From Planctomyces sp. SH-PL62 (GTDB taxonomy: Bacteria > Planctomycetota > Planctomycetia > Planctomycetales > Planctomycetaceae), in assembly GCA_945893045.1 (NCBI GenBank), contig CAMDEA010000009.1, positions 1-64,000 on the forward strand: a DNA stretch of 64,000 bases, written 5' to 3'. Below the pieces are notes generated by a model. The model was not told the DNA's origin and made no database searches. It saw only the letters and a list, made by a program, of their open reading frames with translations. Below are positions 34,581 to 50,846 of this stretch, in pieces (position 1 is the first letter of the stretch; each line of letters starts with the position of its first letter). The position numbers were made by a program, and so were the translations under genes.

Positions 34581-37355
34581 TCAACGATTCGTCGTTTCGT
34601 AGGTGGCTTGGAAGATGGACCGCGCGACGATCCAAACATTATCGGGATAGGGCACGTCTTGATCGGCGGCGTTTTTGACGAGGTAGTCACCGGACTTCCC
34701 ACGAAGTTCTCCCCAGGTGGCATGAACGGTGAAGTCGTGATTGATCTGGGCCGCTTTCACACTGGCACCGTCGGGGCGTGGAGTGAACTGTTGCCAGCCG
34801 TCGGCTTCGATGAGGCCGGTCGGTTCGTATTTCGATTCGAGATTCTTCACGGATTGAGGCCACAATTCACCAGCGGGGCCGCGGCAGAGGTAGTCGCCGG
34901 CGTTGGCTTCGAGGAGTCCTTCCAGCGTGCTCACCGACTGAGCGGCGGATAATCGTTTGGCCCAGACCGGATGAGTCTTCTGAGCCTGGAACCAGGTGCC
35001 GGCACGGTTGACTTCGTTCAGCAGTGCGCGATTCGGAAAACGCTCGCTGCAAAAGTTGAAGGGGCCGATGTCCAGGTTCTGACGCACGATCGCGACGGAC
35101 AGGAAGACGTCCACGATCGGCGCGAGTCCCTGGCCGAGGAAGTATCCCACTCGGCAAACCTGTCGCCACGAACTCTGAGCGTGCTGGATCGTTTGCGGAG
35201 TCAGTTCGGTGAACGCCGCCAGGTATCGGCTGGCGGCGAGGCCAAAGTCGCCGCGAATCAACGCCACTTCCGCTTCGGTGGCGAAGACCCAGTAGCAATC
35301 CGCGTGGGAGGTATCCGCTTTTTGGCAGTGTTGCTTCACGGACTGGATTAATTGCTCGACGACGGCGGTGTCTTGGCGCGACAGCAGTGCCATCGTCGCC
35401 GCGTTGATGCCGGGGAAGTAATGCTGATGGATCTCATACGCTTCCCGATAGGCCTTGTAAGCCGCCTCGTAGAGCTGCCGCAGCACTTCGTGATCGGGAG
35501 TGGTTTTGTTGGCAATCCACTCCTGCCAATTTCGGCCGGCCCTTTCCTTCAGGCAGCGGCCGATGCGTGTGAGCGTTTCATGGTCTCCGAAGTCGGGGCA
35601 GAGCGACCGAAAGGGGGCGACGGCCTCCAGCGCCCGTTTCACGTCACCGGTCGCGGCAAGATTCAAGGCGGTCTCGGCCTTGAGCGGCACGCAGCGCGAG
35701 AATTGCTGTTCGGCCGCAGCGAGAATCGCCAGTGCGGAGGCATGGTCGTTACGGCCCCAAGCCTGGTGAGCCAGGTACAGCGGGATGCGATAGCTGGCCG
35801 CCATCGCGGATGTCGGATTGGCCGCGATGGCGGACGGCTCATGCGACATCTTCGCGGCCGTGAGTTCGGCACAGGCCACGCCCGCCGACACCAGCGCCGA
35901 TTCCGTTTCAGCCGCTTGATACGAGTTCCATTTCGCGGTCGTCAGGCCATACACGGCGAGTGCGAAGTTGTATTCGTCGCGCCAGCCGCCGAACGCTCCC
36001 GGGTGTCGCGAACCCAGCACCAGCGCGGCCTCCTGGCGAATTCGCAGCAGCAGCGTGAGCAACCGGCTCAGCGCTGCCTGGCCGGGAATCAGGTCGCGGC
36101 GACTGGGAGGCTCACGGCTCTCCGCCTGATCGACGCTGTCGATCTGATGCGATTCCTGAGCCAGCAGCCGTTCGATTTCAGACAGCCAGGCCAACCGCTG
36201 AGCACGTTGCGATCGCTTCAGTTCCGCCTGAGGTCTATCGGGCGATTCCACGCGCCGGGCACGCCGAGACCGTGCCAAGAATGCTGCGTGTGTTTCGTGG
36301 TCGTTGTCCAGAATCCACGGCAGCAACCGCGACTTCAATTCCATTTCGAGTTTGACGAAATCCCACGCCACGACGTTGTCCCGAGCCATCTCGCCATAGT
36401 CGTACAAGATCGGTGAGCGGGCTTCGTGACGAGAGACTCCGACCAGAATGTTCTGACCATGCAAGTCTCCATGCGTCGGTCCAACGAGCGTCGATAGGAC
36501 GAACGGAATATCGCGCGCGGCCACGTCGCGAGCCGCATGTTGCAACGCCCAGGCGATGTAATCGACCGGATCAAGATACTTCGGCGCTTCCGGTGATTGC
36601 GGAGCATCTCGGCCAGAGAGGAGCCAGAGCGCATCAGCTCGCAACACCGCGCGGTCACAGCGCGGGTCGCTGTTGGGGAGCGCCGGATCAGCCCTCCAGC
36701 GGTCGGCCACTTTTTGAAACTTGGACGTGTAGAACTCGACCGCTCGCTGCGGATCGTGCTTCGCCGACTTGTAGAACCACTCGTGCAGGTCGCCGAACAA
36801 GTCGACGACGACCCGTTCGACCGACGCCATGTCCGCGAAATCGTGAGAATTCGGATCGTCCGTTTTGATCCCCTTTTCCGCCGCCGATTGCCACGTCACG
36901 GGGACTTGATGCTCCGAGTCGAAGCCAAAAAACAGATAAGCGTTCTCGTAGAGAACCGCCCACCGAGGAATCGGCGGCAGCCCCGGCCGCTCGCTCGTTC
37001 GGTCAGGCAGCGAGCGTTTCGTCACCGGCACGAACAACCGGCTGCGCACATGGCGTTGAGCCACGCATTCTTGCCATCCATCGAAATCGCGCCCGACCTC
37101 CGACTCGTCCCCCAACTTGATGATGTGCGATTGAAACACACCGCCGCGAAACGTCTCGACCCCCAAGATGACTTTCGTCAACGGCTCGTTCTTGAACCCG
37201 ATAAACACATCATGCACCGTCACCCGCTCGATGCCATCCGACGCAAACACCGCGACCAACTCAGCCGAGAGCCGCTGCCGAGTCTCCTCCTGCGGGATCT
37301 TGCCCTGCGCTCGGCTTTCCCAAAGAACCGTGTCGATGGTCAACGGCGTGGTCAT
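34581..37355 (-). CDS. APH/kinase-fold domain with TRAF-binding-type TPR and duplicated C-terminal module
   Basis: A 924-residue cytosolic protein. Residues about 40-340 look like an aminoglycoside-phosphotransferase-like kinase: possible N-lobe lysine Lys80, catalytic loop THGDLHGQNIL (Asp297) and metal-binding YDYGEM (Asp319). A helical region (about 540-790) has the pattern of TRAFs-binding/DUF4071 TPR domains (HYFPGINAATMALL, CYWVFATEAEVALIRGD). The C-terminus holds two copies of a short module beginning GDYL (GDYLCRGPAGELWP and GDYLVKNAADQ), a type I associate with bacterial NTP-dependent conflict systems. Co-directional with the TIR/NB-ARC genes upstream, 339 bp away. Substrate of the kinase-like domain unknown. 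Confidence 0.75.
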   Translation of the reverse strand: MTTPLTIDTVLWESRAQGKIPQEETRQRLSAELVAVFASDGIERVTVHDVFIGFKNEPLTKVILGVETFRGGVFQSHIIKLGDESEVGRDFDGWQECVAQRHVRSRLFVPVTKRSLPDRTSERPGLPPIPRWAVLYENAYLFFGFDSEHQVPVTWQSAAEKGIKTDDPNSHDFADMASVERVVVDLFGDLHEWFYKSAKHDPQRAVEFYTSKFQKVADRWRADPALPNSDPRCDRAVLRADALWLLSGRDAPQSPEAPKYLDPVDYIAWALQHAARDVAARDIPFVLSTLVGPTHGDLHGQNILVGVSRHEARSPILYDYGEMARDNVVAWDFVKLEMELKSRLLPWILDNDHETHAAFLARSRRARRVESPDRPQAELKRSQRAQRLAWLSEIERLLAQESHQIDSVDQAESREPPSRRDLIPGQAALSRLLTLLLRIRQEAALVLGSRHPGAFGGWRDEYNFALAVYGLTTAKWNSYQAAETESALVSAGVACAELTAAKMSHEPSAIAANPTSAMAASYRIPLYLAHQAWGRNDHASALAILAAAEQQFSRCVPLKAETALNLAATGDVKRALEAVAPFRSLCPDFGDHETLTRIGRCLKERAGRNWQEWIANKTTPDHEVLRQLYEAAYKAYREAYEIHQHYFPGINAATMALLSRQDTAVVEQLIQSVKQHCQKADTSHADCYWVFATEAEVALIRGDFGLAASRYLAAFTELTPQTIQHAQSSWRQVCRVGYFLGQGLAPIVDVFLSVAIVRQNLDIGPFNFCSERFPNRALLNEVNRAGTWFQAQKTHPVWAKRLSAAQSVSTLEGLLEANAGDYLCRGPAGELWPQSVKNLESKYEPTGLIEADGWQQFTPRPDGASVKAAQINHDFTVHATWGELRGKSGDYLVKNAADQDVPYPDNVWIVARSIFQATYETTNR

Positions 37356-37694: not shown

Positions 37695-40600
37695 TCAACC
37701 GAGGGACATCCCGTATTCCCCAAGCAGCTCGTTCAGCCGCTCGTGGACTTCAGCGTCGGGAATACCCAGCGCCTGCAACAACCTCGCGTAGTTTCCAACC
37801 ATCACCTGAAGGTGGGGATGCTGATGCCCGGTGGCTTGTGTGAACTTCAACAAGATTCCCACCGTCCGGCGCATCAGCGGCTCGGCTTCCACCAGTCGGT
37901 TCATGGCCTGGAGCAACTGCGCCAGGTTGTTGAGGTTGACGGCGACGTTTGGATGCTCGGCCCCGTAGGACTGCTCGAAGATGGCCAGCGCGCGGCGCAT
38001 CAGCGGCTCGGCCTCCGCCAGACGGTTCGTGGCCTGGAGCAACAGCGCCAGGTTGTTGAGGTCGCGGGCGACGTTGGGGTGCTCGGCTTTGTAGGACTGC
38101 TCGTCGATGGCCAGCGCGCGGCGGATCAGCGGCTCCGCCTCCGCCAGACGGTTCGTGGCCTGGAGCAACTGCGCCAGGTTGTTGAGGTCGATGGCGACGT
38201 CGGAGTGCTCGGCTCCGTAGGACTGCTCGTCGATGGCCAGCGCGCGGCGCATCAGCGGTTCGGCCTCCGCCAGACGGTTCGTGGCCTGGAGCAACTGCGC
38301 CAGGTTGTTGAGGTTGACGGCGACGCTGCGGTGCTCGGCTCCGTCGGACTGCTCGCCGATGGCCAGCGCGCGGCGCATCAGCGGCTCGGCCTCCGCCAGA
38401 CGGTTCGTGGCCTGGAGCAACCCCGCCAGGTTGTTGAGGTGGCGCGCGGCGTTGGGGTGCTCGGCACCGTACGACTGCTCGTCGATGGCCAGCGCGCGGC
38501 GCATCAGCGGCTCGGCCTCCGCCAGGCGGTTTGTGGCCTGGAGCAACTGCGCCAGGTTATTGAGGCAGATGGCGACTCTGGAGTGCTCGGCTCCGTAGGA
38601 CAGCTCGTCGATGGCCAGCGCGCGGCGCATTAGTGGCTCAGCTAGCGCCCAATCGGCGAGGTTCTTCCACCGATGGCCAGCTTGGTTGAGCAGCCACGAC
38701 GCTCGCTGATGACCGGTCTCGGCCCACAGATCGGCGAGGGCGTCCAGAGGTTCGAGTTCCCAGCGTGCGTCCTGCCAGCGCGTCGTTTGTTCCAGCACTC
38801 GGTCCCGTTCTTCGATCAACGCCTGCAGGGACTGCTGCCGCTCCGCAACGGTGGACTCGTCCAGGTTGCGGCGGACCAGGTCTTGAACCAGGCGGTGGAC
38901 TCGCACCAGCCGTTGGTCCGTCGTCTCTTCTTCGACACGCAGGAACAACGCCAAGCGCACCAGGCGGCGACAGAGATCCAACCACGGATCAGACAAACGC
39001 GAGCGCTGGCTCAAATCCGGGAAATCCTGCGTCACCAACGTCTGCAACCAAGGGAGCGGAACCAGATCGGGAGGGAGACAGGCCGCGTATTCCAGCGCGC
39101 GACGTTCCGCGGGTTGCAACTCGTCCAGCACGGGACCAAGCACCGCCGACAAACGACGCTGATGATTGTGCCGCCGCAGTTCCACATCGTCCGAGTCGGC
39201 GATCGTCTCCAAGTCCTCCAAACCGAGACCCTCCGCGAACTGTGCGTAGTTGGTTTCGGGATGCGAGGCCAACCAAGCCGCGACCAACTCGACCGCCAGC
39301 GCGAAACCGCCGAGGCGTTTCACGATGCGGAGTGCGGCGGTGCGGTCAGTGTCAGAAGAAGACGCAGGCGGGCCGCCTACGCTACGTTCGAACGGGCGAT
39401 GCTTCTCCAGCAGGTCGAGCGCGTCGGCATCCGGCAGTTCGCCCAACGTCAGCCATGCGCCGCCGGATGGCGGGAGCAGCCGCGTCGTTGCCAACAGATG
39501 CAGCTTCGGTCCCAGTGACGTGAGCAGGTCGGTCTGTTGCGGCGAGACGACTTGCAGGTCCGAGACGTTGTCCAACACCAGCAGGATGTGATCGATCTTG
39601 TCAAGCCGCTCGCGCAGGCAGGACTTGATCGCCGCGAAGTACGTTTCGGCTGTCTTCCGTTCTTCATCGCTGATCTGGTCGCGGAACAAGTCACCCAGAT
39701 GGAGTGCCGCGTCGCGCAGGCTCGACTTGCCCTCGCAGGGAACCAGGAACCGGCCTCCCGGATACCCGCTGGCGAAGGCGTGAGCGTAAGTGAATGCCAA
39801 CTCGGTCTTGCCGATGCCTCCCAAGCCATGCACGCCGCAGATGACTCCGGCGCGGTCGTCCTTCAGCCGCTGTCGCAGGTCGAGCAGTTCGTTCAAGCGG
39901 CCGGAGAACTGCTTGTTGTACGGCGGCACGGTGCTGAGACTGTCCGCCGCCAGTCGCACACGCTTGGTTCGCTCGTCAAGATCGCGAGCCAAACGCTCCA
40001 ACACGCGCCGCAAATCGTCGCGCAGCAAGGCATCGACCCCTTGCTGCTGAAGCGGTTGCACAAACTCTCGCGTGATCTGCCGACGATCGCGCATCTGCTG
40101 CATCATCGGTGCCGACGCCATGATGAAGTTCTCGTGCGGTTCTGGAAGTCGGCAAAGTTCGGCGACCTGACGCGCGACTTCATGCTCGTCCAACATCGCT
40201 TGCTCACGCAGGCCGGGCAAGTTGCCGACTAACCCCGGCACCTCGACGAAATAGACCAGTGCGCCACCGCTCGACAAAACGTGCTTGGCAATCTCGATGT
40301 CGATCCACGCCTTCCACTCCGTCCGGCACCACTCTCTGGTAAAGTAGCTCGGCGAGATGAACGCCAGAAACAGCCGCGACTTCGCCAGACCGTGATGCAG
40401 CCGATGTTGCCAGTCGTCGAAGCTGCGAATGTCGTCGCTGTCGAAGAAGTAGGTCAGCTCGCGCCCGCCGCTGAACTTGCGGTGCTCGACCAGCAGCTCT
40501 TCGACGAACCGAGTGATCCAGCCGTCAAAGTTGTCCGCGCGGGCATACGAGACGAAGAAGTCAAACTCATCCAGTGGACGACGCATCAATGGCTGCTGCC

Positions 40601-41045
40601 TGAGGGACAGCGTCTGGATCTCACGCCACGCCCGCTCGACCTGCTCGGCGATGGGCTGTCCGTCCGTTGTGGCTCGGCGTTCGATCTCGCCATCGGTTAC
40701 CCAGAGAACTCCGGGTTGCGACTCAATTCGATCCTGTGCGTCCGTCGTCAACGTCATTGAGAAGACTTCGTGCCGATACCGAGTCTGCTCCTGCACGGAT
40801 TCCGAAAACGCCTCGTAGTCGAGTTTCGCCAATGCTGGCTCGCTGACTTGGAAGTCTTGGCCGTGAGTCAACCCAAGTTCCTCCTCGACCTCGCGCCGCA
40901 CACACTCACGAAACGATTCGTCCGCTTCGAGATGCCCTCCGACCAACGCGAACCGCTGCCATCTCTCGTTCCACAGCACGAGCCACTGCGACTCATCGCC
41001 GACACGCCGCTCGATCCAAGCCAAACCGGCAAACGATTCACGCAT
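37695..41045 (-). CDS. Nudix-TIR-NB-ARC-TPR fusion (STAND-type conflict protein)
   Basis: An 1116-residue protein. Residues 1-150: Nudix hydrolase domain with a complete Nudix box, GHLEADESFRECVRREVEEE and following LGL (37-59), matching GX5EX7REUXEEXGU. About 158-320: TIR domain (FDFFVSYARADN) keeping the predicted NADase glutamate, WCRTE with Glu243. About 380-780: NB-ARC ATPase with P-loop GLGGIGKTE and Walker B ILLVLDNV. About 800-1080: six TPR units of 42 residues encoded by near-identical 126-bp DNA repeats. A plausible cycle is TPR sensing, NB-ARC assembly, TIR cleavage of NAD and Nudix processing of products. ATG 41043-41045 is chosen because codons upstream derive from a palindromic element. 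Confidence 0.85.
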   Translation of the reverse strand: MRESFAGLAWIERRVGDESQWLVLWNERWQRFALVGGHLEADESFRECVRREVEEELGLTHGQDFQVSEPALAKLDYEAFSESVQEQTRYRHEVFSMTLTTDAQDRIESQPGVLWVTDGEIERRATTDGQPIAEQVERAWREIQTLSLRQQPLMRRPLDEFDFFVSYARADNFDGWITRFVEELLVEHRKFSGGRELTYFFDSDDIRSFDDWQHRLHHGLAKSRLFLAFISPSYFTREWCRTEWKAWIDIEIAKHVLSSGGALVYFVEVPGLVGNLPGLREQAMLDEHEVARQVAELCRLPEPHENFIMASAPMMQQMRDRRQITREFVQPLQQQGVDALLRDDLRRVLERLARDLDERTKRVRLAADSLSTVPPYNKQFSGRLNELLDLRQRLKDDRAGVICGVHGLGGIGKTELAFTYAHAFASGYPGGRFLVPCEGKSSLRDAALHLGDLFRDQISDEERKTAETYFAAIKSCLRERLDKIDHILLVLDNVSDLQVVSPQQTDLLTSLGPKLHLLATTRLLPPSGGAWLTLGELPDADALDLLEKHRPFERSVGGPPASSSDTDRTAALRIVKRLGGFALAVELVAAWLASHPETNYAQFAEGLGLEDLETIADSDDVELRRHNHQRRLSAVLGPVLDELQPAERRALEYAACLPPDLVPLPWLQTLVTQDFPDLSQRSRLSDPWLDLCRRLVRLALFLRVEEETTDQRLVRVHRLVQDLVRRNLDESTVAERQQSLQALIEERDRVLEQTTRWQDARWELEPLDALADLWAETGHQRASWLLNQAGHRWKNLADWALAEPLMRRALAIDELSYGAEHSRVAICLNNLAQLLQATNRLAEAEPLMRRALAIDEQSYGAEHPNAARHLNNLAGLLQATNRLAEAEPLMRRALAIGEQSDGAEHRSVAVNLNNLAQLLQATNRLAEAEPLMRRALAIDEQSYGAEHSDVAIDLNNLAQLLQATNRLAEAEPLIRRALAIDEQSYKAEHPNVARDLNNLALLLQATNRLAEAEPLMRRALAIFEQSYGAEHPNVAVNLNNLAQLLQAMNRLVEAEPLMRRTVGILLKFTQATGHQHPHLQVMVGNYARLLQALGIPDAEVHERLNELLGEYGMSLG

Positions 41046-41100: not shown

Positions 41101-41301
41101 GGTAGCCACGCTCGCCAAGAGCGTGGGTTTTCGCCGAATCTCCCCACGCTCTTGGCGAGCGTGTTGAATTTCCTGTTTAACCCCAACGCCAACGGCGTGG
41201 GCGGGACGAGGAATAACGACTTACGTTCGCACGCACGCCGATGGCGTGGCGGTTAAACAACTTTTTCAACACGCTCTTGGCGAGCGTGGCGACAGACCTA
41301 C
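41101..41301. repeat. Nested composite palindromic element, GTAG/CTAC heads
   Basis: GTAG at 41101-41104 and CTAC at 41298-41301 bound hairpins built from CACGCTCGCCAAGAGCGTGG and its inverse. Inside is a second inverted element opening GTTTAACCCCAACGCCAACG and closing in CGGTTAAAC, a relative of the one at 22230. This looks like one element inserted into another. The terminal CTAC contains the TAG stop of the Nudix-like gene. Confidence 0.8.
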
Positions 41302-41762
41302 GGAAACGACTGACCGCCTAGATTCGATTCTCCTTCGGCTTGTTTGAGGAGATTCACCGCCGTCGGCGAAATCGGCGCTCGGCGTGGGTCGAGCCATTCC
41401 TCAATCGTCAGCCATTCGGTGATGAGACCGGCGATTGGCTCAATGCCATCGGGCAGGTCAAATCGAAATGCCTGGTAGTCGTACTCTTTGATCGCACCAT
41501 CTCGATCGCTTTGCTGAAAGCCCAGCAGGCTCACGAGCGGCTTCAACCCCACGACGGTCTTGCCAATGTTCTCGGCGATGGCTCGCGAGGCGGCGTGTTC
41601 CCAAGATTCGTCCCGATGCACGGTTTCGATCTTCTTGTCCTGCATCACGCGACGCTTCGTCATGGGCAATGTGAACGCTCCCCAAGCCGCGTTGTAAACC
41701 GCCAAGATGCGACCGCCACGCACGATCGCCACCGCAGAAACCTCGACCTTTGGAAACGGCAT
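41298..41762 (-). CDS. Nudix-fold protein with degenerate catalytic box
   Basis: A 154-residue protein with the Nudix strand pattern (VSAVAIVRGGRILAVYN, WGAFTLPMTKRR) and a helix in the right place, WEHAASRAIAENIGK, but without the REUXEE metal-binding residues. It is probably catalytically dead and may bind a nucleotide-diphosphate ligand. ATG 41760-41762 follows AAAGGGA. It lies between the phosphofructokinase gene (66 bp) and the Nudix-TIR-NB-ARC gene (252 bp, with the palindromic element) on one strand. Family assignment is by fold pattern and less certain than for its neighbour. Confidence 0.65.
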   Translation of the reverse strand: MPFPKVEVSAVAIVRGGRILAVYNAAWGAFTLPMTKRRVMQDKKIETVHRDESWEHAASRAIAENIGKTVVGLKPLVSLLGFQQSDRDGAIKEYDYQAFRFDLPDGIEPIAGLITEWLTIEEWLDPRRAPISPTAVNLLKQAEGESNLGGQSFP

Positions 41763-41828: not shown

Positions 41829-43100
41829 TCATGCCAACGCGATGTCTTGAGGAGACGCCGTCGAGCGATCCGGCTTCGGCCAACGGCTGAGCGACTTCTG
41901 TAACTCGTACAACAAACCCTGCGTGGCCGAGTCGGCGACGACCTGCATGCCGAACGGTTGCCAGCCGACTCGCCCCAGGCGCAACCCGATCAAACCACTA
42001 CGAGCAACGGACGGAGTGATCGCGTCCCAAGCCGCCTCGGCAAATCGAGCGGCCAGCACGCGGTCCTCACCGGTGGGAGCACCGCCGCGCTGCAAGTGTC
42101 CGAGAATGCTGGCGCGGACTTCGGTCTGCGGAACCCAGCTCTCCTGGCGGCGAAAATAGCGCTGCAATCGAGCGGCCAGCGCCGGCGCGGGACTGCCGCC
42201 GGGAACCTCGTCGTGAGCGACTCCTTCCGAGATCAGCACGATGGCGTGCGAGCGTCCGCCGCGTAGCGATTCTTCGATCCGCTCGCCGATGCCCACCGCT
42301 TTCTCTTCGGTGAGCGGCCCACGTTCGGGAGTCACGAGAATCTCCGCCCCCGACCCCAATGCCGCCAGCCGAGCGAGTTCACCGCTGTCACGTCCCATCG
42401 TTTCCAGCACCATCACGCGGCCATGCGAACCAGCCGTGTCGTGAAATCGCTCAATCGCCCAGATCAACGTATTGACCGCCGTGTCCACCCCCAACGACCG
42501 CTCGGTACATGCCACGTCGTTGTCGATCGAGCCGGGGATGCCGATCACCAACCGATTTCCTTCCGCGTCCAGCCGCTCGGCCCCGGTCAACGAGCCGTCA
42601 CCGCCGCACACCGCCAACGCTTCGATCTGCATTGCCGCGAGCCACCGCAGCACCTGCTGCCGCGTCGCTTCGTCATAAAACTCCGAGCAGCGACCCGCTC
42701 CCAACACAATCCCACCGCGTCCCGACAAACCGCTGACCGATTCATGATCGAGGCTGACCACATCCCGCGACCGATCACGCAACCCAGCCAACCCGCGCCG
42801 CGATTCGATCTGAGCCACGGTGTCATCCGCCGAATAACCGTAGCCGAAGTTGTGAGACTTCGGGGAGACCGTCGCGTCATCCGAATTCTCACGAATTCGG
42901 CTACGAGAACTCACCAACCGCCGCGCGGCTCGGACCAATCCCTGATATCCGTCTCGCACGCCCCAGACCTCAGCCTCATACCGATTCAACCCCAACCGCA
43001 CGAACGCTCGCAGGAACGGATTCATCCCCGGAGCATCCCCACCCGAAAACAACACCGCGACCCGACGCTTGAACGAGAAAGTGGCCGACACGTTCGACAT
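41829..43100 (-). CDS. 6-phosphofructokinase-family protein with in-frame palindromic insertion
   Basis: A 423-residue PFK-family enzyme. Nucleotide-binding GGDAPGMN (20-27), GGDGS (166-170; the Gly after Asp indicates the ATP-type rather than pyrophosphate-type), and catalytic PGSIDND (189-195) are present. Between residues about 66 and 88 the sequence RIRENSDDATVSPKSHNFGYG is translated from a 67-bp REPIN-like palindrome; bacterial PFKs are much shorter here. It may be the normal glycolytic PFK or a member recruited to the surrounding conflict locus; position alone cannot decide. ATG 43098-43100 follows GGGAG; an upstream in-frame start at 43115 is less likely. Confidence 0.85.
   Translation of the reverse strand: MSNVSATFSFKRRVAVLFSGGDAPGMNPFLRAFVRLGLNRYEAEVWGVRDGYQGLVRAARRLVSSRSRIRENSDDATVSPKSHNFGYGYSADDTVAQIESRRGLAGLRDRSRDVVSLDHESVSGLSGRGGIVLGAGRCSEFYDEATRQQVLRWLAAMQIEALAVCGGDGSLTGAERLDAEGNRLVIGIPGSIDNDVACTERSLGVDTAVNTLIWAIERFHDTAGSHGRVMVLETMGRDSGELARLAALGSGAEILVTPERGPLTEEKAVGIGERIEESLRGGRSHAIVLISEGVAHDEVPGGSPAPALAARLQRYFRRQESWVPQTEVRASILGHLQRGGAPTGEDRVLAARFAEAAWDAITPSVARSGLIGLRLGRVGWQPFGMQVVADSATQGLLYELQKSLSRWPKPDRSTASPQDIALA
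42839..42905. repeat. REPIN-like element inside the phosphofructokinase gene
   Basis: Outer 10-bp inverted repeats CGTAGCCGAA (42839-42848) and TTCGGCTACG (42896-42905) enclose hairpins CCGAAGTTGTGAGACTTCGG and CCGAATTCTCACGAATTCGG. The GTAG/CTAC heads are the same as in intergenic elements. The reading frame stays open through it. Confidence 0.85.
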
Positions 43101-43281: not shown

Positions 43282-46143
43282 TCATCCCTGGCGGCGATCA
43301 GGAAGGCTCCGTCTGAACGTCCTCGCTTCCTCATCAAACAGATCGTCGTCCCAACGGGCGAAGATCTCACTGAAGAACTGTGTGTGTGGGTGTGAGTCGC
43401 CCAATGCAGATCGGAATCCTGCGACCGCTCGCTGCATCATGTCTTTGGCCTCTCTTTGCTCTCCGTTCGAAAAAAACAAATTGGCCAGATTTCCCAGTGC
43501 CATCAGCGTGTTGGGATGCTCGGTCCCCAGCACCCGCTCGTTGGCCTCCAACGCGCGGCGAAGGAACGGCTCGGCCTGTTCATAGTCGCCGGTTGTGTAA
43601 AGCAACGCGGCCAGATTGTTGAGCGCCGCTAGCGTGTCTGGATGCTCGGCCCCTTGCACCCGCTCGCGGGCCTCCAGCACACGGCGCTGCAGCGGCTCGG
43701 CCTGTTCAAAGTCGCCGGTTTTGTAAAGCAACACTGCTAGGTTGTTGATCGCCAGCAGCGTGTTGGGATGCTCGTCCCCCAGCACCCGCTCGCAGGCTTC
43801 CAACGCGCGGCGCAGCAGCGGCTCGGCCTGCTCGTAGTCGCCGGTTTCGTAATGCAACATCGCCAAGTTGTTGAGCGACAACAGCGTGTCGGGATGCTCG
43901 TCCCCCAGGACTCGCTCGCAGGCCTCCAGCGTGCGGCGCAGTAACGGCTCAGCCTGTTCGTAGTCGCCGGTTGTGAAAAACAACGTCGCCAAGTTGTTGA
44001 GCGACGTCAGCGTGTCGGGATGCTCGTCCCCCAGCACCCGCTCGTGGACCACCAGCGCGCGGTGCAGCAGCGGCTCGGCCTGTTCGTAGTCGCCGGTTTG
44101 GTAATGCAAGATCGCCAAGTTGTTGAGCGAAATTAGTGTGGTGGGGTGCTCCGCCCCCAGCACTCGCTCGCAGGCATCCAGCGCGCGGCGACAAAATGGT
44201 TCGGCATGTTCGAAGTCGCCTGCACTGGAAAGCACATTCGCCAAGCTACAAAGTGACGATAGCGTGTCAGAATGCTCGGCCCCAAGTAATCGCTCACTCT
44301 GCTCCACCACTCGCCGCAGGAGCGGTTCGGCAGCGGCATCGTTGCCTTGACGTAGATAGCAGTCCGCCAAATTGTGTGCGGTCGATAGCAAATCTAGATC
44401 GTTGGGGCCAAGTTGCTCTTCTGCCTCTTTCCATTGAAGAATCGCATAACCCGTCGCTTCAGAAAATCGCCCCTGGCTCACGAGATAGCCACTGATGAGA
44501 AACAGCAGACTTATGTTTGGACGCTGGTGGACCAACTTTGAAACGTGCGAATGAAGTGATTCTCCGTGTGGCAGCAGTACCCGCCAAGCCGGCCAGTGCG
44601 CGAAGTCTTCCGGTGGTCTTGGCGCGTGATGGTTGAATGTTTTCACGGCGCGCTGCCACCACTCACCTCGCTCGTCCTCGGTAAGAGAGAGTCGCTCCAC
44701 CGTCTGCACCAAGCCGTGAAGCTGCGTCGTACGACCATCGAACTGCGCCATCGAGTAACGCTTGAGTGCGGTCAATGCTTGGCGTACGAAGAATTCGTCG
44801 TTCGCCGTGGTGGCGTCGGGCACCGTGGACACTCCGAGGGACTCGGTCCACGTCCGAACGTTTTTCGCCGAGTCCACGAACATCTGGATCGGCAACGGCG
44901 TGGCTGCAACGAAAGCCGCCAAACGGAGAATCACGCGGGAGGCGGCTGGGAGTTTCGTCACCGTCGTCTTCCAGGTGGTGATGACCGGGTCGGGATACTC
45001 GGTGGAGCCGAGGGCTTGGAGCGCGAGAAGTTCGGCCGTGGATTGCTCATACAGTTTCAAGTAGTCCGAGAATCCGAACCCCGATCCTTGTTCGCCGATG
45101 TACGCCGCGGCCTGTTCCAGCGCGAGCGGCAAGTAGCCGAGCTTCTCGGCCAGTGTTTCGCAAGCGGCCAGTTCGTCCGCTGTGACCGTGCTCGATTCCC
45201 AGCCGGACCGGCGGAGCAGCAGGGTTCGCGAGGGGTCTTTCTCCAGCACATACAAATGGATGGTCTGGATCGCCGCCGACCAGCCGGCGAATCGCGAGGT
45301 CAAGAGCGTGTGGCAACCGCCGGTCTTTGGAATCCACGCCTGTGCGGTCGCTTCGTCTTCTGCGTTGTCGAGGATCAGCAGGCGGCGGTCGCGGCTGTTC
45401 AACTCTTCGAGCGTGCGACGGGCCTTGAGGTCATCCGTGAGTCCTGCGTTCGCCAAGTCGGGAAACAGCAGATCGAAAATGTGTGCGAATTCTGACTCGT
45501 AGCCCAATCGTGTATCCACCCAAAAAATCTGCGGATACAGCCGCCAGAACTTCTCCGCATACTGGCGTGCGAGCGTCGTCTTCCCCACGCCGCCGAGCGC
45601 CGCGATGGCGCGGACGCGTCCCTGTGTCAGCACGGCCGTCGGATTCTCGTGGAGTTGCTCATGAATCCGCAGCAGGTCTTCCTCGCGTCCCACAAAGTAT
45701 GGGTTCGCTCGGTAGCGCAAGTGCGTGAGACGGCGTGTGCGGTCTGGCGGCGGCTCGGCGAGCAGCGTTCGCAGTGCCGCAAACATGCGCGGCCAGTCCG
45801 CACTCGCTCCGCCCCTGAAGTCCATCGTCTGTGACTGAAAGCTGGTGAGCGGCGAAGTGCTGACGTCTTCAAACTGGCCCTCGCATAAGATCGGAATCAC
45901 TGCCTCGGCACCATAGGTTTCAAACTTGGTCCACTCCGATAAACGCCAGCGCGGCGTCAGCACCGGAAGCTTGATGCGGGAGTCCTCGGCCCCTTGTTCG
46001 ATATCGCGATGCCAGTCACAGCCAGGCTGCAACCGGACCTTGTCGAACCAAACCGTGAAGCCCGCAGCCACCAAACGCCGATGCAACTCTTCGGCGAACG
46101 CGAGGTCCGCAGATGCGTAGCTGATGAAACAGTCATAGGACAT
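43282..46143 (-). CDS. TIR-NB-ARC-TPR protein (STAND-type conflict protein)
   Basis: A 953-residue protein. TIR at 1-110 (YDCFISYASADLAFAEEL) with predicted catalytic Glu75 four residues after Trp71. NB-ARC ATPase about 150-480: P-loop ALGGVGKTT (182-190), Walker B RRLLILDNAE, sensor HTLLTSR and the GYLPLALEQAAAY element typical of NB-ARC/Apaf-like ATPases. About 580-915: eight or so TPR units of 42 residues; their DNA repeats every 126 bp from about 43490 to 44330 with high identity. Probably a prokaryotic NLR-like sensor whose TIR consumes NAD on activation. Divergent from the LysR gene; same strand as the phosphofructokinase gene, 181 bp away. Confidence 0.88.
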   Translation of the reverse strand: MSYDCFISYASADLAFAEELHRRLVAAGFTVWFDKVRLQPGCDWHRDIEQGAEDSRIKLPVLTPRWRLSEWTKFETYGAEAVIPILCEGQFEDVSTSPLTSFQSQTMDFRGGASADWPRMFAALRTLLAEPPPDRTRRLTHLRYRANPYFVGREEDLLRIHEQLHENPTAVLTQGRVRAIAALGGVGKTTLARQYAEKFWRLYPQIFWVDTRLGYESEFAHIFDLLFPDLANAGLTDDLKARRTLEELNSRDRRLLILDNAEDEATAQAWIPKTGGCHTLLTSRFAGWSAAIQTIHLYVLEKDPSRTLLLRRSGWESSTVTADELAACETLAEKLGYLPLALEQAAAYIGEQGSGFGFSDYLKLYEQSTAELLALQALGSTEYPDPVITTWKTTVTKLPAASRVILRLAAFVAATPLPIQMFVDSAKNVRTWTESLGVSTVPDATTANDEFFVRQALTALKRYSMAQFDGRTTQLHGLVQTVERLSLTEDERGEWWQRAVKTFNHHAPRPPEDFAHWPAWRVLLPHGESLHSHVSKLVHQRPNISLLFLISGYLVSQGRFSEATGYAILQWKEAEEQLGPNDLDLLSTAHNLADCYLRQGNDAAAEPLLRRVVEQSERLLGAEHSDTLSSLCSLANVLSSAGDFEHAEPFCRRALDACERVLGAEHPTTLISLNNLAILHYQTGDYEQAEPLLHRALVVHERVLGDEHPDTLTSLNNLATLFFTTGDYEQAEPLLRRTLEACERVLGDEHPDTLLSLNNLAMLHYETGDYEQAEPLLRRALEACERVLGDEHPNTLLAINNLAVLLYKTGDFEQAEPLQRRVLEARERVQGAEHPDTLAALNNLAALLYTTGDYEQAEPFLRRALEANERVLGTEHPNTLMALGNLANLFFSNGEQREAKDMMQRAVAGFRSALGDSHPHTQFFSEIFARWDDDLFDEEARTFRRSLPDRRQG

Positions 46144-46341: not shown

Positions 46342-47346
46342 ATGGGGCGGCCGACTGAGATTTCGCTGAAGATGCTGCACGCCTTCCTGACGTGGGCTGA
46401 GTCTGCCTCCGAGGATGAGGCCGCTCACAAGCTGGGGATCACACAACCGGCCGTGCATCGCAAGCTGGAGAAATTCCAGACGCAGATCGGCTCTGGCCCG
46501 CGATTGATGCAGCGCGGTCGAGCCGGTTGGGAACTGACCGATGAGGGCCACCTGATCCTGCCGGTGATTCGCGATCTGGTCCGCCGCTTCGAGCAACTCG
46601 AAGCTCACCTGTCCGACCGCGACGAACCGCCGCGAGTGCTGCGCATTGCCACCGGCCAGTTCGCCGCTCAATACATCCTGCCGCGAGCCATCGCCGCGTT
46701 GCGCGAGAAACTCCCCGACTGCCGACTCGAAACCCATTTGGCCCGCGGCCTCGACCGCATCCTCGGAGTTGCCAATGCTCAATACGACTTGGCGATCGTC
46801 ACGCACACTCCCGACCAGGTTCACGCCCTCGTCCGCAAACATTTTCAATCGCGCGAACGCCTGCTGACCTGCGAGCCACTCGCCCGGTATCCCTTCGTCG
46901 TCGTGGCTCATCGGGACACTCCCGAAGGTCGAGTCCTCTCGCAACTCTCACCGCAAGCCGCCATCGCTCCGCACCAACTGAGCGGCCTGCGCCTCGTCGG
47001 CCTCGACCCTCAATCGGGCCTGCGGCAACGCCTCGAAAAGCTGACCGAGGGAACGCCGCTCACCTTCGCGCCCGACACTCACACCGGCGGCTGGCCCGCC
47101 GCCCTCGCCTGCGCCGAACAACGCCTCGGAGCCGCCCTCGTCCCCCACACCGTGCTCCCGCCCAGCCGAGAGCAATCCTTCGTCGCCCGCCCCTTCGACG
47201 AGTCCTTCACGCTCGACGAATACCTCATCACCCGCCCCGATTTCAGCGACTCAACGTCAGCAGTCGTCAACGCGGTCCTCCGAGAAGCGGCACTGTCATC
47301 TCGTGGTCCCCTCGCCCGGCTTTGCGGGGAGAGTGTTAGGGTGTGA
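46342..47346 (+). CDS. LysR-family transcriptional regulator
   Basis: A 334-residue regulator. N-terminal winged helix-turn-helix (about 8-66: AHKLGITQPAVHRKLEKFQ) and a periplasmic-binding-like effector domain (about 98-300). The start has GAGAGGA 7 bases upstream. It is divergent from the TIR-NB-ARC-TPR gene with a 198-bp shared gap, the classical arrangement for a LysR protein controlling its neighbour and itself; whether it controls the conflict genes is inference. The inducer is unknown. Its GTG/TGA end abuts the TIR gene downstream. Confidence 0.9.
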   Translation: MGRPTEISLKMLHAFLTWAESASEDEAAHKLGITQPAVHRKLEKFQTQIGSGPRLMQRGRAGWELTDEGHLILPVIRDLVRRFEQLEAHLSDRDEPPRVLRIATGQFAAQYILPRAIAALREKLPDCRLETHLARGLDRILGVANAQYDLAIVTHTPDQVHALVRKHFQSRERLLTCEPLARYPFVVVAHRDTPEGRVLSQLSPQAAIAPHQLSGLRLVGLDPQSGLRQRLEKLTEGTPLTFAPDTHTGGWPAALACAEQRLGAALVPHTVLPPSREQSFVARPFDESFTLDEYLITRPDFSDSTSAVVNAVLREAALSSRGPLARLCGESVRV

Positions 47347-47375
47347 TTTGCAGACCCATCGAGCAGCGGTTGATA

Positions 47376-48578
47376 ATGAAGAAAGCTAATTCTCGATCAT
47401 TGGGCCACAGCATGACGACGAAATCTGAGAGCCATTGTTTCCGAGCGTTCCTGTCTTACTCGCACGACGACTTTGAAATCGCCGAATGGGTCGCGGCCGT
47501 GCTGTGCGAGTGCAACGTGATCCCCGTGTGGGATCAACACCTGCGGCCGGGCGAGCGTTTTTCTGACGCGATCAAGGACATGATTGGATCGGCGCATCTC
47601 TTCATTCCATTGCTGACGCCCAAATCCTTGCAGGGTGCCTGGGTTCTTCAAGAGACGGGATATGCAACCGCCCTCAACATCCCGGTGCTGCCGCTGGCTC
47701 AAGGTGTGATCGACAAAGACACGATCGTCAGGGAACTTCAAGCGGTCGTCTTCAAAGACATCGATGAACTGCGAGAGAAGCTCAAGCAGACCAACTTCGG
47801 TCGACTCGTCCGGCCTGAGCTGAGCCTTCCGAAGCAGATCTGCCACGAAGCTTACTGGCCCGAGGAACGCACGGACCTCATCGCCAAGTACACGAATCTC
47901 GTCCTCAACATACGGGGTTCCGCGGCCCCGGCATGCAAGGACCGGCCACAGGTGAGGTCATCCGGCAAGCTGCTCCAGGCTGGGGCTCTCAGTTCGTTCT
48001 GCCTGCCGGATGAAGATCTCGGTTCGCCTGTGTGGACGCGTCGCGATGGCGATCAAGTTCGCAGCGACTATTACCACCATTTGCAGCGTGAGGAACGTCG
48101 AGCCTTGGAGCGTTACGCGCGGCTCGAAGGCTGTCGTCTGGTGCTTTATTTGGGACAAACTTATTCTGGACGCGGTGACGAGATCCAAGCCCGAACGGTT
48201 CGCTATTCTCGACTCAAGACGTTGGTCGAATCACTCCAGTCGATGCGGGACGGCGGATGCAACTTGGAAGTCGTGGTCTCAGATGTCCCTCACGATGGCA
48301 ACCTGACGATCGTCGGCGACTGGTTTCTTGCGGAGTCGCTCTTACCGGGTGTCGGTGGCTACCGACAGACGCTGTTTAAGTGGCATGCACCGACCGTGTT
48401 TCAACGCATTGAGCAATTCAATCAACGCTTTGAGGAATTGCGTGATCGAAAGCCCCGCAAGACGTTGGCTCAAATCATTCGCAATATTGAAACGATCCTG
48501 AAGTCGCTGAAAAGTGCTGGACTAACTCCCGAAGACGGTAAGTCCCCCAAGCCGAAACTTTCGGCGAGGAAAAGATAG
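47376..48578 (+). CDS. TIR-domain protein with unknown C-terminal domain
   Basis: A 400-residue protein. TIR domain at about 20-160 (FRAFLSYSHDDFEIAEW) with predicted catalytic Glu93 four residues after Trp89 (AWVLQE). After a linker, residues about 200-365 form a separate alpha/beta domain (CRLVLYLGQTYSGRGDE, LEVVVSDVPHDGNLTIVGDW) that I do not recognise. No ATPase. It could be an NADase effector activated by its C-terminal sensor. The frame opens at 47343; ATGs at 47376 and 47412 are both possible starts. It begins 29 bp after the LysR gene on the same strand and ends 6 bp before the convergent cyclase gene. Confidence 0.8.
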   Translation: MKKANSRSLGHSMTTKSESHCFRAFLSYSHDDFEIAEWVAAVLCECNVIPVWDQHLRPGERFSDAIKDMIGSAHLFIPLLTPKSLQGAWVLQETGYATALNIPVLPLAQGVIDKDTIVRELQAVVFKDIDELREKLKQTNFGRLVRPELSLPKQICHEAYWPEERTDLIAKYTNLVLNIRGSAAPACKDRPQVRSSGKLLQAGALSSFCLPDEDLGSPVWTRRDGDQVRSDYYHHLQREERRALERYARLEGCRLVLYLGQTYSGRGDEIQARTVRYSRLKTLVESLQSMRDGGCNLEVVVSDVPHDGNLTIVGDWFLAESLLPGVGGYRQTLFKWHAPTVFQRIEQFNQRFEELRDRKPRKTLAQIIRNIETILKSLKSAGLTPEDGKSPKPKLSARKR

Positions 48579-48584
48579 TCCACG

Positions 48585-50846
48585 TCAGCGCTGCGACTGG
48601 TTTTCGGCGACGTTGGACGAGCTGGTCGGTGTTTGCGTTGCAGGCTGCGAGGCCGGGCACCGTCGCACGACGTAGGTGGGATAGGTGCCGTGGTGCTTGG
48701 CCCATTCCAGCAGCTTGACGTACTCGCACATGAAATCCGTGACTTTCAGTTGAGCGGTTAGCGCGGCGAAGGCGTCGCTGGCGTAGACCTCACCGGGAGG
48801 AGTCTTGGGTTCCAGGCGAGCGGCGCGGCTGACATGCGAGCCAATGCACTTGGGGAGGCCGGTCACGGGGTCTTGTCCGAGTTGCACCGGTCCGGCGTGC
48901 AAGGCGATGCGGATCTCGATCTCGCGTGACAGGCCGACGTCTTCTTTCCAACGGGTCTGTCGGATCGAGTCACACAGATCGAGCGCGAAGCGTCCCGCGC
49001 AGACGACGTCGCGAAACGCGAAATACAGACCGTCGCCCCAAGTTTCGCGGATGGGCACGCTCGTCTGGCTCCAGTCGTGATTCGCGTTTGCCACCGCGGC
49101 CGAGTGCTTGGCCACGACATCGGCCACCAATTGCAAATAGCGCGGAATAAAGAGACGCACCTCCCGGTCGGACAGTCCACTGAAGCCCACGGCATCGGCA
49201 AACAACATCGACATGACCGCCTCGCGGGGATCGCTGTCGTTGTCACGGGGAGGAGTTCGACTGGGAAGGGGACACTCCGGGCCTTCGCATCGAACGGGCA
49301 ACGCTTGCAAAGCGTTCGCGTCTAATTGAGGTGACGAGATGTCGATCGTGTAGACGGTGAGGTCTTGGTCTCTCCAATGCGCCACCGTGTCCGCCGTGCC
49401 GCCGGCACCATCGCCGGGTTGACCATTCCAAACCGCCAAACCCAGGAGGTTCGTTTGAAACTCCTGCTGACAGAGCATGGCTTGTCCCAGCAGGACTCGG
49501 TTGGCGTAAAGGAACGGTGCTCCGGCCGAGCCAATGCGGTCGTGAGACGCGATGGTCACTTGCGCCGCCTTCTTCAAAACGCGGTGATACAGCTCTTCCC
49601 AAAACGGCTCGCCGGTTCGAGCCACGCTGTCGGGGATGAATTGTTCTTCGGCATACGGCAGCACGACGCGCGTGATGCTGCCCGGCAGCGCCTGCAAAGC
49701 CTCCAGAAACAGCAGGTCCGCTCCGCAGGCGGCCGAGCAGAATCCAATGCGGACATTGTGCTCCCGGAGCCACTGCGAAATCGCCGCTCGCACCGGTTCG
49801 ACCAGAGCCCACGGAAACCGCGGCGGCTGACGTCCGGGCTCGTCGATGCGATGACCGGTGAATACGGCGATCTTGGGAATGGGCAGCCAATCGTCGACCA
49901 GACGGATGTCTTCCCCCAGCGTCTCCAGCATGACTTTCAACTGTCGCCGGGACGAGTTCAGATGCCCGGCGCGCCCCTCCGAGACCGAGGCCGCCTCGCG
50001 ATACCAATGCTCGGCTTGTTTGAAGTCGCACTGATCGAGATACGCTTCGCCCAGAGTGGCCCACAGCCAATACGGATCGTCGGGTTTGGTAGTCTCGTCA
50101 GCAGACTCTTTCTGCCTCTTCCGCTTCGCTTCCGCCTCAAGGCACTCCTGCGTGATCTGGCGGGCGACGTCCAAGGCTTGTGCGCGTTCGCCCATCAGCA
50201 AATGCAACGTCGCCACATTGATGCCGGTCCAAAATGAGCCGTCGTCCGCAGTCCACGCTTGGAAGTACAGGTTGCGTGATCGCCGAAAGTGGATTGCGGC
50301 CTCCTCCGGTTGCTGTCGCGCGAGCGCCGCCAGGCCGAGATCTTTTTCGATCCGCGCTTCCAGGCCGCTCAGTTCTTCATTGCGTTTGATGTGAGCCAGC
50401 GCGGGATCTTGCAGCACGCGCAAGGCTTCGTCGACGGCACCGGATCGTGCCAGCGCCAGGCCCTTGAGGTGCAACAGTTCCGAGTCCTGTTTGTCTTTGT
50501 CCAAAGCCAACCCGGCCGAGGCGACTTCACGAGCCGCGAATGGCGAACCCTCGGCAATCAGTCGTTGAGCCAGCATTCGATACGGGACTGGCGATTGCCA
50601 CTCCACGAGCTTCACATCGTGAGTCCGCCAAATGCTCATGACCTCCGCGGCCGGCAGGTTGGCTCGCTGCAAGCTCTCCACGAGTGCTTCCGTCGCGGGT
50701 ACGTGTTGTGAAACTCCTGGATTTAGGGAGACGCCGTGTCCTTCGAGTGCTTGCAGCACCAGCGAGATGTTTTCGGGCGAGACCTGATTCGTCAGTTGCG
50801 CGGCGAGCAACTGCTGGAGGTTCTCGGTCTGGCTGACAACAGGCAT
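48585..50846 (-). CDS. TPR-SLOG-class III nucleotide cyclase
   Basis: A 753-residue cytosolic protein. About 60-320: TRAFs-binding-type TPR region (FWTGINVATLHLLMG, YWLWATLGEAYLDQCD). About 323-490: SLOG-like Rossmann domain starting KIAVFTGHRIDEPG with CSAACGADLLFLEAL, a superfamily that binds nucleotide-derived ligands. About 540-720: class III cyclase with metal-binding Asp residues in LFADAVGFSGL and WGDGLYFAF; the usual transition-state Asn is Ser in HVSRAARLE while the Arg is kept, so activity may be altered. Predicted output is a cyclic nucleotide; sensing of a nucleotide ligand by SLOG is inference. Convergent with the TIR gene. Confidence 0.85.
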   Translation of the reverse strand: MPVVSQTENLQQLLAAQLTNQVSPENISLVLQALEGHGVSLNPGVSQHVPATEALVESLQRANLPAAEVMSIWRTHDVKLVEWQSPVPYRMLAQRLIAEGSPFAAREVASAGLALDKDKQDSELLHLKGLALARSGAVDEALRVLQDPALAHIKRNEELSGLEARIEKDLGLAALARQQPEEAAIHFRRSRNLYFQAWTADDGSFWTGINVATLHLLMGERAQALDVARQITQECLEAEAKRKRQKESADETTKPDDPYWLWATLGEAYLDQCDFKQAEHWYREAASVSEGRAGHLNSSRRQLKVMLETLGEDIRLVDDWLPIPKIAVFTGHRIDEPGRQPPRFPWALVEPVRAAISQWLREHNVRIGFCSAACGADLLFLEALQALPGSITRVVLPYAEEQFIPDSVARTGEPFWEELYHRVLKKAAQVTIASHDRIGSAGAPFLYANRVLLGQAMLCQQEFQTNLLGLAVWNGQPGDGAGGTADTVAHWRDQDLTVYTIDISSPQLDANALQALPVRCEGPECPLPSRTPPRDNDSDPREAVMSMLFADAVGFSGLSDREVRLFIPRYLQLVADVVAKHSAAVANANHDWSQTSVPIRETWGDGLYFAFRDVVCAGRFALDLCDSIRQTRWKEDVGLSREIEIRIALHAGPVQLGQDPVTGLPKCIGSHVSRAARLEPKTPPGEVYASDAFAALTAQLKVTDFMCEYVKLLEWAKHHGTYPTYVVRRCPASQPATQTPTSSSNVAENQSQR

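What the first reader, a model, noticed from the sequence alone, without database searches (positions are those of the whole stretch)
37695..41045. Nudix domain fused in front of a TIR-NB-ARC-TPR protein
The Nudix box at residues 37-59 matches the full consensus and is in one frame with TIR, NB-ARC and TPR parts. Joining a potential ADP-ribose hydrolase to a potential NADase in the same chain suggests built-in limitation or conversion of the TIR product. TIR-NB-ARC-TPR alone is common; the Nudix addition is unusual to me.
Basis: partly seen in the sequence, partly recalled or inferred. Interest (0 to 1): 0.75.

Follow-up and report, generated by a model that had tools for sequence, protein, structure and literature searches.

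The report
Nudix-headed TIR protein in defence island
A planctomycete bacterium carries a protein in which a nucleotide-cleaving Nudix enzyme is joined to a TIR/NB-ARC immune-receptor-like protein, and relatives show that this Nudix domain belongs to a recurring, seemingly undescribed multi-gene signalling system onto which different defence effectors have been attached more than once.

Summary
Window 37695-41045(-) is one 1116-aa frame: Nudix (full catalytic box), TIR (catalytic Glu243 kept), NB-ARC, TPR. It is not an assembly error: a second species of the genus carries the same Nudix-TIR junction, truncated by a deletion. Among 398 Planctomycetia species, 4 have an intact Nudix-TIR-NB-ARC protein, and trees of both halves point to at least two separate fusions. 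The same Nudix ("NudB") recurs at 17 loci, mostly without a fused TIR: alone, or fused to DUF4062-NB-ARC-TPR, a SLOG-like domain, TCAD9 or other Nudix domains. Its usual partners are a catalytically dead Nudix paralog ("NudA", window 41298-41762), a kinase-like TCAD9/TPR-S protein (34581-37355) and a divergent LysR regulator (46342-47346); some loci add TPR-S-cyclase or RyR genes. I read it as a two-Nudix, NAD/nucleotide-centred conflict-system core that takes plug-in effectors; the window shows the TIR-STAND version. The substrate is unknown; the downstream motif resembles ApnA hydrolases more than ADP-ribose hydrolases. No description was found, but a key subscription paper could not be read.

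The parts
40602..41045 (-). NudB: active-type Nudix domain, residues 1-148
   Evidence: PF00293 E 9.8e-10; full box residues 37-59; pLDDT about 97; 17 homologous loci
40869..40937 (-). Nudix box GHLEADESFRECVRREVEEELGL (residues 37-59)
   Evidence: full consensus match
40146..40571 (-). TIR domain (about residues 159-300)
   Evidence: PF13676 E 2.1e-12; profile hits to solved TIRs; Foldseek AbTir 7uxu
40317..40319 (-). TIR catalytic glutamate, Glu243
   Evidence: motif conserved in 8 of 8 TIRs checked
39222..39875 (-). NB-ARC/STAND ATPase region (about residues 391-608), P-loop GLGGIGKT
   Evidence: NB-ARC 19.7 bits, NACHT 24.6 bits, both just below cut-off; FxSxx_TPR NF040586 alignment 373-809, below its cut-off
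37854..38576 (-). TPR array (about residues 824-1064), encoded by six near-identical 126-bp units
   Evidence: TPR_12 E 1.5e-68; tandem repeat 37867-38639, 89% matches
37695..41045 (-). whole fused gene NudB-TIR-NB-ARC-TPR, 1116 aa
   Evidence: single open frame
41298..41762 (-). NudA: degenerate Nudix paralog, 154 aa, catalytic glutamates lost
   Evidence: no Pfam hit; profile-profile match to NudB E 1.2e-11; Foldseek top hits Nudix, weak E; 0 of 10 homologs keep REUxEE
34581..37355 (-). TCAD9 (kinase/APH-like, HGDLHxxN...D) + TPR-S + C-terminal PGDYG-like domain
   Evidence: PF19974 E 1e-13, PF20308 E 6e-10; motif conserved in 7 of 7; C-terminal domain stands alone in 6 other genomes
46342..47346 (+). 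LysR-type regulator, divergent from the operon
   Evidence: PF00126/PF03466; homologs next to the NudA/NudB genes at 6 other loci plus a remnant in G401
43282..46143 (-). second TIR-NB-ARC-TPR protein, 953 aa
   Evidence: TIR_2 E 8e-18, NB-ARC E 1.7e-7
48585..50846 (-). TPR-S + SLOG-like middle part + class III nucleotide cyclase
   Evidence: PF20308 E 2e-11; PF00211 20.7 bits, just below its cut-off; full-length homologs only at NudA/NudB loci
47343..48578 (+). TIR protein overlapping the LysR gene by 4 nt; possible component
   Evidence: TIR_2 E 6e-15; no homolog at the other loci
41829..43097 (-). phosphofructokinase paralog between the TIR-STAND and NudA genes; probably a bystander
   Evidence: PF00365 E 5e-79; not found at any other NudA/NudB locus; one of three in the genome

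Best explanation
The gene is the effector component of a modular, nucleotide-centred conflict (defence) system whose core is two Nudix proteins (NudA dead, NudB active), a kinase-like TCAD9/TPR-S protein and a divergent LysR regulator. NudB serves as the N-terminal docking and messenger-turnover module. In this lineage a TIR-NB-ARC-TPR effector was joined to its C-terminus, so the effector is tethered to the NudA/TCAD9/TPR-S sensor complex. Proposed working: at rest NudB hydrolyses a nucleoside-diphosphate-linked messenger (perhaps with NudA binding it non-catalytically) and so sets a threshold; on an invasion signal the messenger rises or the complex rearranges, the NB-ARC/TPR part oligomerises, and the TIR cleaves NAD+ and arrests the cell. 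Shown: architecture, intact catalytic residues, recurrent gene partners, more than one fusion event, purifying selection on the core. Inferred: complex formation, messenger, threshold role, NADase outcome, defence function.
For: 17 loci in 15 genomes carry NudB; 16 of 17 keep E...REUxEE. NudA lies beside or fused to NudB at 11 of 17 and never has the catalytic box. TCAD9 is adjacent or fused at 8 of 17, including direct NudB-TCAD9 fusions in G550 and G702. The LysR homolog occurs, divergent, only at these loci (8 including the window and the G401 remnant). Homologs of the TPR-S-cyclase protein likewise (G636, G702, G432, G550; G450 matches weakly through TPR-S only). G622 has the window's order: NudA, NudB-DUF4062-NB-ARC-TPR, TCAD9-TPR-S. 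The window TIR-NB-ARC groups with Nudix-less G455 (66-71% identity, support 96/94), apart from the other Nudix-fused clade (95/95): at least two label changes. On the Nudix tree, TIR-fused NudBs form one clade in 0 of 200 bootstrap trees. G401 lost the TIR-NB-ARC-TPR part but keeps NudA, NudB and TCAD9 with dN/dS 0.17-0.31.
Against: No activity, interaction or defence phenotype has been measured. NudB also occurs with no recognisable partner (G632, G726:C63, G498), so the core is not obligatory. dN/dS from one species pair is weak evidence that truncated NudB is functional now. The docking role is inferred only from domain position and fusion partners. Some loci lie at contig ends.
Confidence: 0.5

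Rival explanations
1. One reading: the Nudix domain hydrolyses the ADP-ribose or cyclic ADP-ribose made by the TIR of the same chain, limiting or converting the signal.
For: Both active sites intact in one chain; Nudix-TIR fusions arose more than once; in G636 and G517 a TIR gene lies directly after NudB; Nudix enzymes acting on ADP-ribose are known in NAD-based conflicts (PMC9503650).
Against: NudB is kept catalytically intact without any TIR in the chain and in G401 after TIR loss; the downstream motif is not that of ADP-ribose diphosphatases; the SLOG-, DUF4062- and TCAD9-fused versions need another explanation.
Confidence: 0.25
2. The Nudix is itself an effector or an integrated decoy: it depletes or decaps nucleotides or RNA (ApnA, NTP, NAD caps), or mimics a host target of phage proteins, and the TIR-STAND part only adds sensing and killing.
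For: ApnA-type aromatic residue and Ap4A hydrolase as top Foldseek hit; NudB sits N-terminally, the usual effector position in STAND proteins.
Against: The TIR already occupies the effector slot; NudB also exists next to non-STAND sensors; no toxicity data.
Confidence: 0.13
3. Neutral read-through fusion of two neighbouring genes, without functional meaning.
For: Rare (4 of 398); one descendant lineage (G401) has already lost the TIR part.
Against: At least two fusions to TIR-NB-ARC and others to DUF4062-NB-ARC, SLOG-like and TCAD9 domains with the same NudB; frames are intact across large divergence (37-38% identity).
Confidence: 0.08

Closest known systems
Bacterial TIR-NB-ARC (AP-ATPase)-TPR STAND proteins, incl. 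those of FxSxx-COOH/VMAP systems (PMC7159879; NCBIfam NF040586/NF040588)
   Same: TIR, NB-ARC and TPR order; closest relative G455 has this without Nudix
   Different: N-terminal Nudix; scores 201 bits against a cut-off of 300 for FxSxx_TPR and 51 against 130 for FxsC
TCAD9/TPR-S conflict systems (Pfam PF19974, PF20308)
   Same: the adjacent gene 34581-37355 carries both domains above cut-off
   Different: here tied to a Nudix pair and a LysR regulator; I found no paper in the library describing that set
Thoeris (TIR ThsB with SLOG/Macro effector ThsA)
   Same: TIR enzyme; NAD-derived signalling theme; SLOG-like domain fused to NudB in G517
   Different: no ThsA among the seven window proteins scanned; ThsB models hit only weakly, in the neighbouring TIR proteins
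Non-catalytic sensor Nudix domains (NrtR, AraR, TRPM2 NUDT9-H, DBC1)
   Same: NudA is a conserved Nudix fold without catalytic residues; structural hits include NrtR and AraR for NudB and AraR and TRPM2 for NudA
   Different: ligand binding by NudA not tested; no DNA-binding or channel domain attached
Nudix Ap4A/ApnA hydrolases
   Same: top Foldseek hit 1kt9; aromatic residue 16-19 after the box
   Different: part of a multi-domain effector; activity unknown

Membership tests
Nudix hydrolase | Nudix fold and GX5EX7REUXEEXGU box | tested here: met
   PF00293 above cut-off, full box, Foldseek
Nudix hydrolase | pyrophosphohydrolase activity on an NDP-X substrate | not testable with these tools
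   needs enzyme assay
ADP-ribose diphosphatase subfamily | proline about 15-16 residues after the box | tested here: not met
   absent in the window protein; present in 2 of 15 homologs (motif described in PMC5389931; the exact spacing is from my own knowledge)
ApnA hydrolase-type Nudix | tyrosine in the corresponding downstream position | tested here: inconclusive
   Tyr or Phe 16-19 residues after the box in 15 of 15, Tyr77 in the window (whose count starts one residue early); a correlate only
TIR NADase | TIR fold with catalytic Glu in C-x2-E motif | tested here: met
   TIR_2 E 2e-12; Glu243; AbTir structural hit
TIR NADase | NAD+ cleavage | not testable with these tools
   needs assay
STAND/NB-ARC switch ATPase | P-loop NTPase between effector and TPR sensor | tested here: met
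   P-loop GLGGIGKT; NACHT and NB-ARC hits just below cut-off, but long alignment to FxSxx_TPR
FxSxx-COOH system TPR protein | curated NCBIfam cut-off | tested here: not met
   201.1 bits, cut-off 300
vWA-MoxR ternary systems (VMAP, iSTAND) | vWA and MoxR genes beside the effector | tested here: not met
   no vWA or MoxR among the nine proteins scanned between 34.6 and 50.8 kb
Thoeris | ThsA partner with SIR2-SLOG or Macro | tested here: not met
   no ThsA model hit in seven window proteins scanned

The most novel reading that the evidence does not exclude
An undescribed class of bacterial nucleotide-signalling immune system, built on a heteromer of one active and one dead Nudix protein with a kinase-like TCAD9/TPR-S partner, in which the active Nudix is a general plug for exchangeable effectors (TIR-NB-ARC-TPR, DUF4062-NB-ARC-TPR, SLOG-like domains).
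Probability: 0.35. Interest if true: 0.8.

Novelty: new variant of a known kind. Interest (0 to 1): 0.62.

Why it matters
If right, it puts a messenger-degrading or messenger-binding enzyme physically inside a TIR immune receptor and shows that the same Nudix module has been joined to different effectors. That makes a general question testable: do bacterial NAD/nucleotide immune pathways have built-in off-switches or thresholds? It also supplies a two-Nudix gene signature (NudA/NudB) and a LysR marker by which to find such systems in other genomes.

Tried and rejected
Assembly or frameshift joining two genes: rejected (same junction in G401, intact homologous fusions elsewhere). 'Standalone Nudix in L001 shows that the fusion is young': rejected on seeing the TPR-repeat remnant at the junction. 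PFK as a system component: no homolog at other loci, and two further PFKs in the genome; rejected as core, though it lies in the operon-like run. Plasmids: no match for the Nudix-TIR region, NudA, NudB or TCAD9 protein. Viral contigs: no relative of NudA or NudB. PADLOC: only weak hits to two candidate families, PDC-S66 over the TIR region and PDC-S07 over the Nudix box. Other TCAD9 loci of the phylum search (L055-L069): none carries NudA or NudB at E <= 1. My first TIR query script used a wrong frame and was redone. The Nudix substrate could not be fixed from motif or fold.

Full report
Observation. Window 37695-41045(-) is a single 1116-codon frame. Pfam finds NUDIX (E 9.8e-10), TIR_2 (E 2.1e-12), weak NB-ARC/NACHT and strong TPRs in that order. 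The Nudix box and the TIR glutamate are intact. AlphaFold on 22 related sequences gives the Nudix domain pLDDT near 97; Foldseek matches it to solved Nudix hydrolases (C. elegans Ap4A hydrolase first, then others including NrtR and AraR) and the TIR part to the AbTir NADase.

Not an artefact. The one relative found in the genome collection, L001 (the same contig as G401, a second species of the genus), has a 90% identical Nudix. Its frame continues into DEFDFFVSYA, the first TIR residues, then at a shared GCC switches to GCCATCGACGAGCAGTCCTACGG, which is TPR-repeat DNA of the same gene, and stops. So the fusion existed in the common ancestor and G401 carries a deletion. The deletion ended in the 126-bp tandem TPR units. 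Remnants in L001 of the LysR start, of the spacer before the PFK and of the PFK 3' end indicate that much of the window's array was also present and then lost there. NudA, NudB and the TCAD9 protein were kept with dN/dS 0.29, 0.19 and 0.31 (0.17 for the C-terminal part of the last).

How rare. In 392 genomes drawn across the phylum, only the window genome has the fusion, but G145, of another family, has the unfused Nudix (43% identity) in a three-gene set. In 398 Planctomycetia genomes, four have an intact Nudix-TIR-NB-ARC protein (window; G726:C63, 1103 aa; G681:C73, cut by the contig end; G498:C32, 1335 aa) and G401 a remnant. NudB-type Nudix domains were found at 17 loci in 15 genomes.

What travels with the Nudix. 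(a) NudA: a 150-aa protein directly upstream, or fused, at 11 of 17 loci. It has no Pfam hit, but its 10-row profile matches the NudB profile over 127 columns (E 1.2e-11) and its AlphaFold model (pLDDT 67) finds mostly Nudix structures at weak E-values. None of 10 NudAs keeps the catalytic glutamates, whereas 16 of 17 NudBs do. (b) A TCAD9 protein, mostly with TPR-S, adjacent at 6 loci and fused to NudB at two more (G550, G702). TCAD9 here carries an HGDLHxxN...D motif in 7 of 7 sequences and one member hits the APH phosphotransferase model, so it looks like a kinase-type domain. (c) A LysR-type regulator, divergent, at seven loci including the window plus the G401 remnant, and nowhere else in 827 kb of fetched loci. 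(d) TPR-S-cyclase proteins homologous to window 48585-50846 at G636, G702, G432 and G550, and RyR-domain genes or fusions at G622, G636, G702 and G474. G622 repeats the window's order with DUF4062 in place of TIR: NudA, NudB-DUF4062-NB-ARC-TPR, TCAD9-TPR-S.

Independent fusions. The window's TIR-NB-ARC region groups with the Nudix-less G455 protein (support 96/94) inside a four-member clade (100/100) whose other members lack Nudix, while the other three fused proteins form a separate clade (95/95): at least two changes. The Nudix halves agree: TIR-fused NudBs are never one clade in 200 bootstrap trees. Sampling is small and one gain with several losses is not strictly excluded. Further NudB fusions exist to a SLOG-like domain (G517, motif-level only: no Pfam SLOG hit), to TCAD9, and to NudA-type domains (G726:C53, G639).

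Mechanism. The recurring unit is NudA-NudB-TCAD9/TPR-S with LysR; the TIR-STAND part is one of several attachments. I therefore favour a model in which NudB is a docking and messenger-turnover module and the fused TIR-NB-ARC-TPR is its effector. The in-chain product-limiting model remains open (0.25). Against its simplest form: NudB lacks the ADP-ribose diphosphatase proline and has an aromatic residue at the ApnA position (motifs described in PMC5389931). That is a correlate, not proof. TPR-S is, from my memory of Burroughs and Aravind 2020, a scaffold predicted to recognise NAD+-derived signals; the paper is not held, so this is a lead only, but it would fit the TIR, SLOG-like and Nudix company.

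Relation to known systems. The protein is a Nudix-headed variant of TIR-NB-ARC-TPR STAND proteins. It fails the FxSxx curated cut-offs, has no ThsA partner among proteins scanned and no vWA/MoxR neighbours among proteins scanned. PMC7159879 lists Nudix only once, as a possible ADPr/NAD-acting effector domain in vWA systems. Library searches found no account of a Nudix pair with TCAD9/TPR-S. Novelty is therefore probable but not secured; I rate it a new variant of a known kind.

Noticed in passing
41829-43097: Phosphofructokinase paralog inside the operon-like run; its match to the PFK model is split by an insert (model positions 1-47 and 34-277 match separately). One of three PFKs in the genome; absent from all other NudA/NudB loci; its 3' end survives in G401.
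   Followed up: partly
34581-35045 (C-terminal about 150 aa of the TCAD9 protein): PGDYG-like domain fused here but a free-standing 160-aa gene in six other family members, in G424, G524 and G427 next to genes with SLATT-like 2TM domains or a TGHR (SLOG-like) motif.
   Followed up: partly
L109:6537-7865, L111:7619-8941: Single proteins with three Nudix-type parts in a row: two degenerate ones and an active one.
   Followed up: partly
37867-38639 and 43504-44283: Both TIR-NB-ARC-TPR genes carry six 126-bp near-identical tandem TPR units; in G401 the deletion ended in such a unit.
   Followed up: yes
41107-41292: Repeated palindromic elements (CACGCTCTTGGCGAGCGTG and similar) in the spacer between NudA and the fused gene.
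   Followed up: no
L081:7749-11093: In G450 a TCAD9-TPR-S gene is followed by a SLOG-like plus TIR protein and a TrkA-type channel-like gene, with no Nudix.
   Followed up: no
L115:7373-7943: NudB of G432 is split between two frames beside an intact TPR-S-cyclase gene; a frameshift or decay.
   Followed up: no
48585-50846: The cyclase keeps both metal-binding aspartates (FAD, WGDG), but the usual catalytic Asn is Ser (GSHVSRAARL).
   Followed up: no
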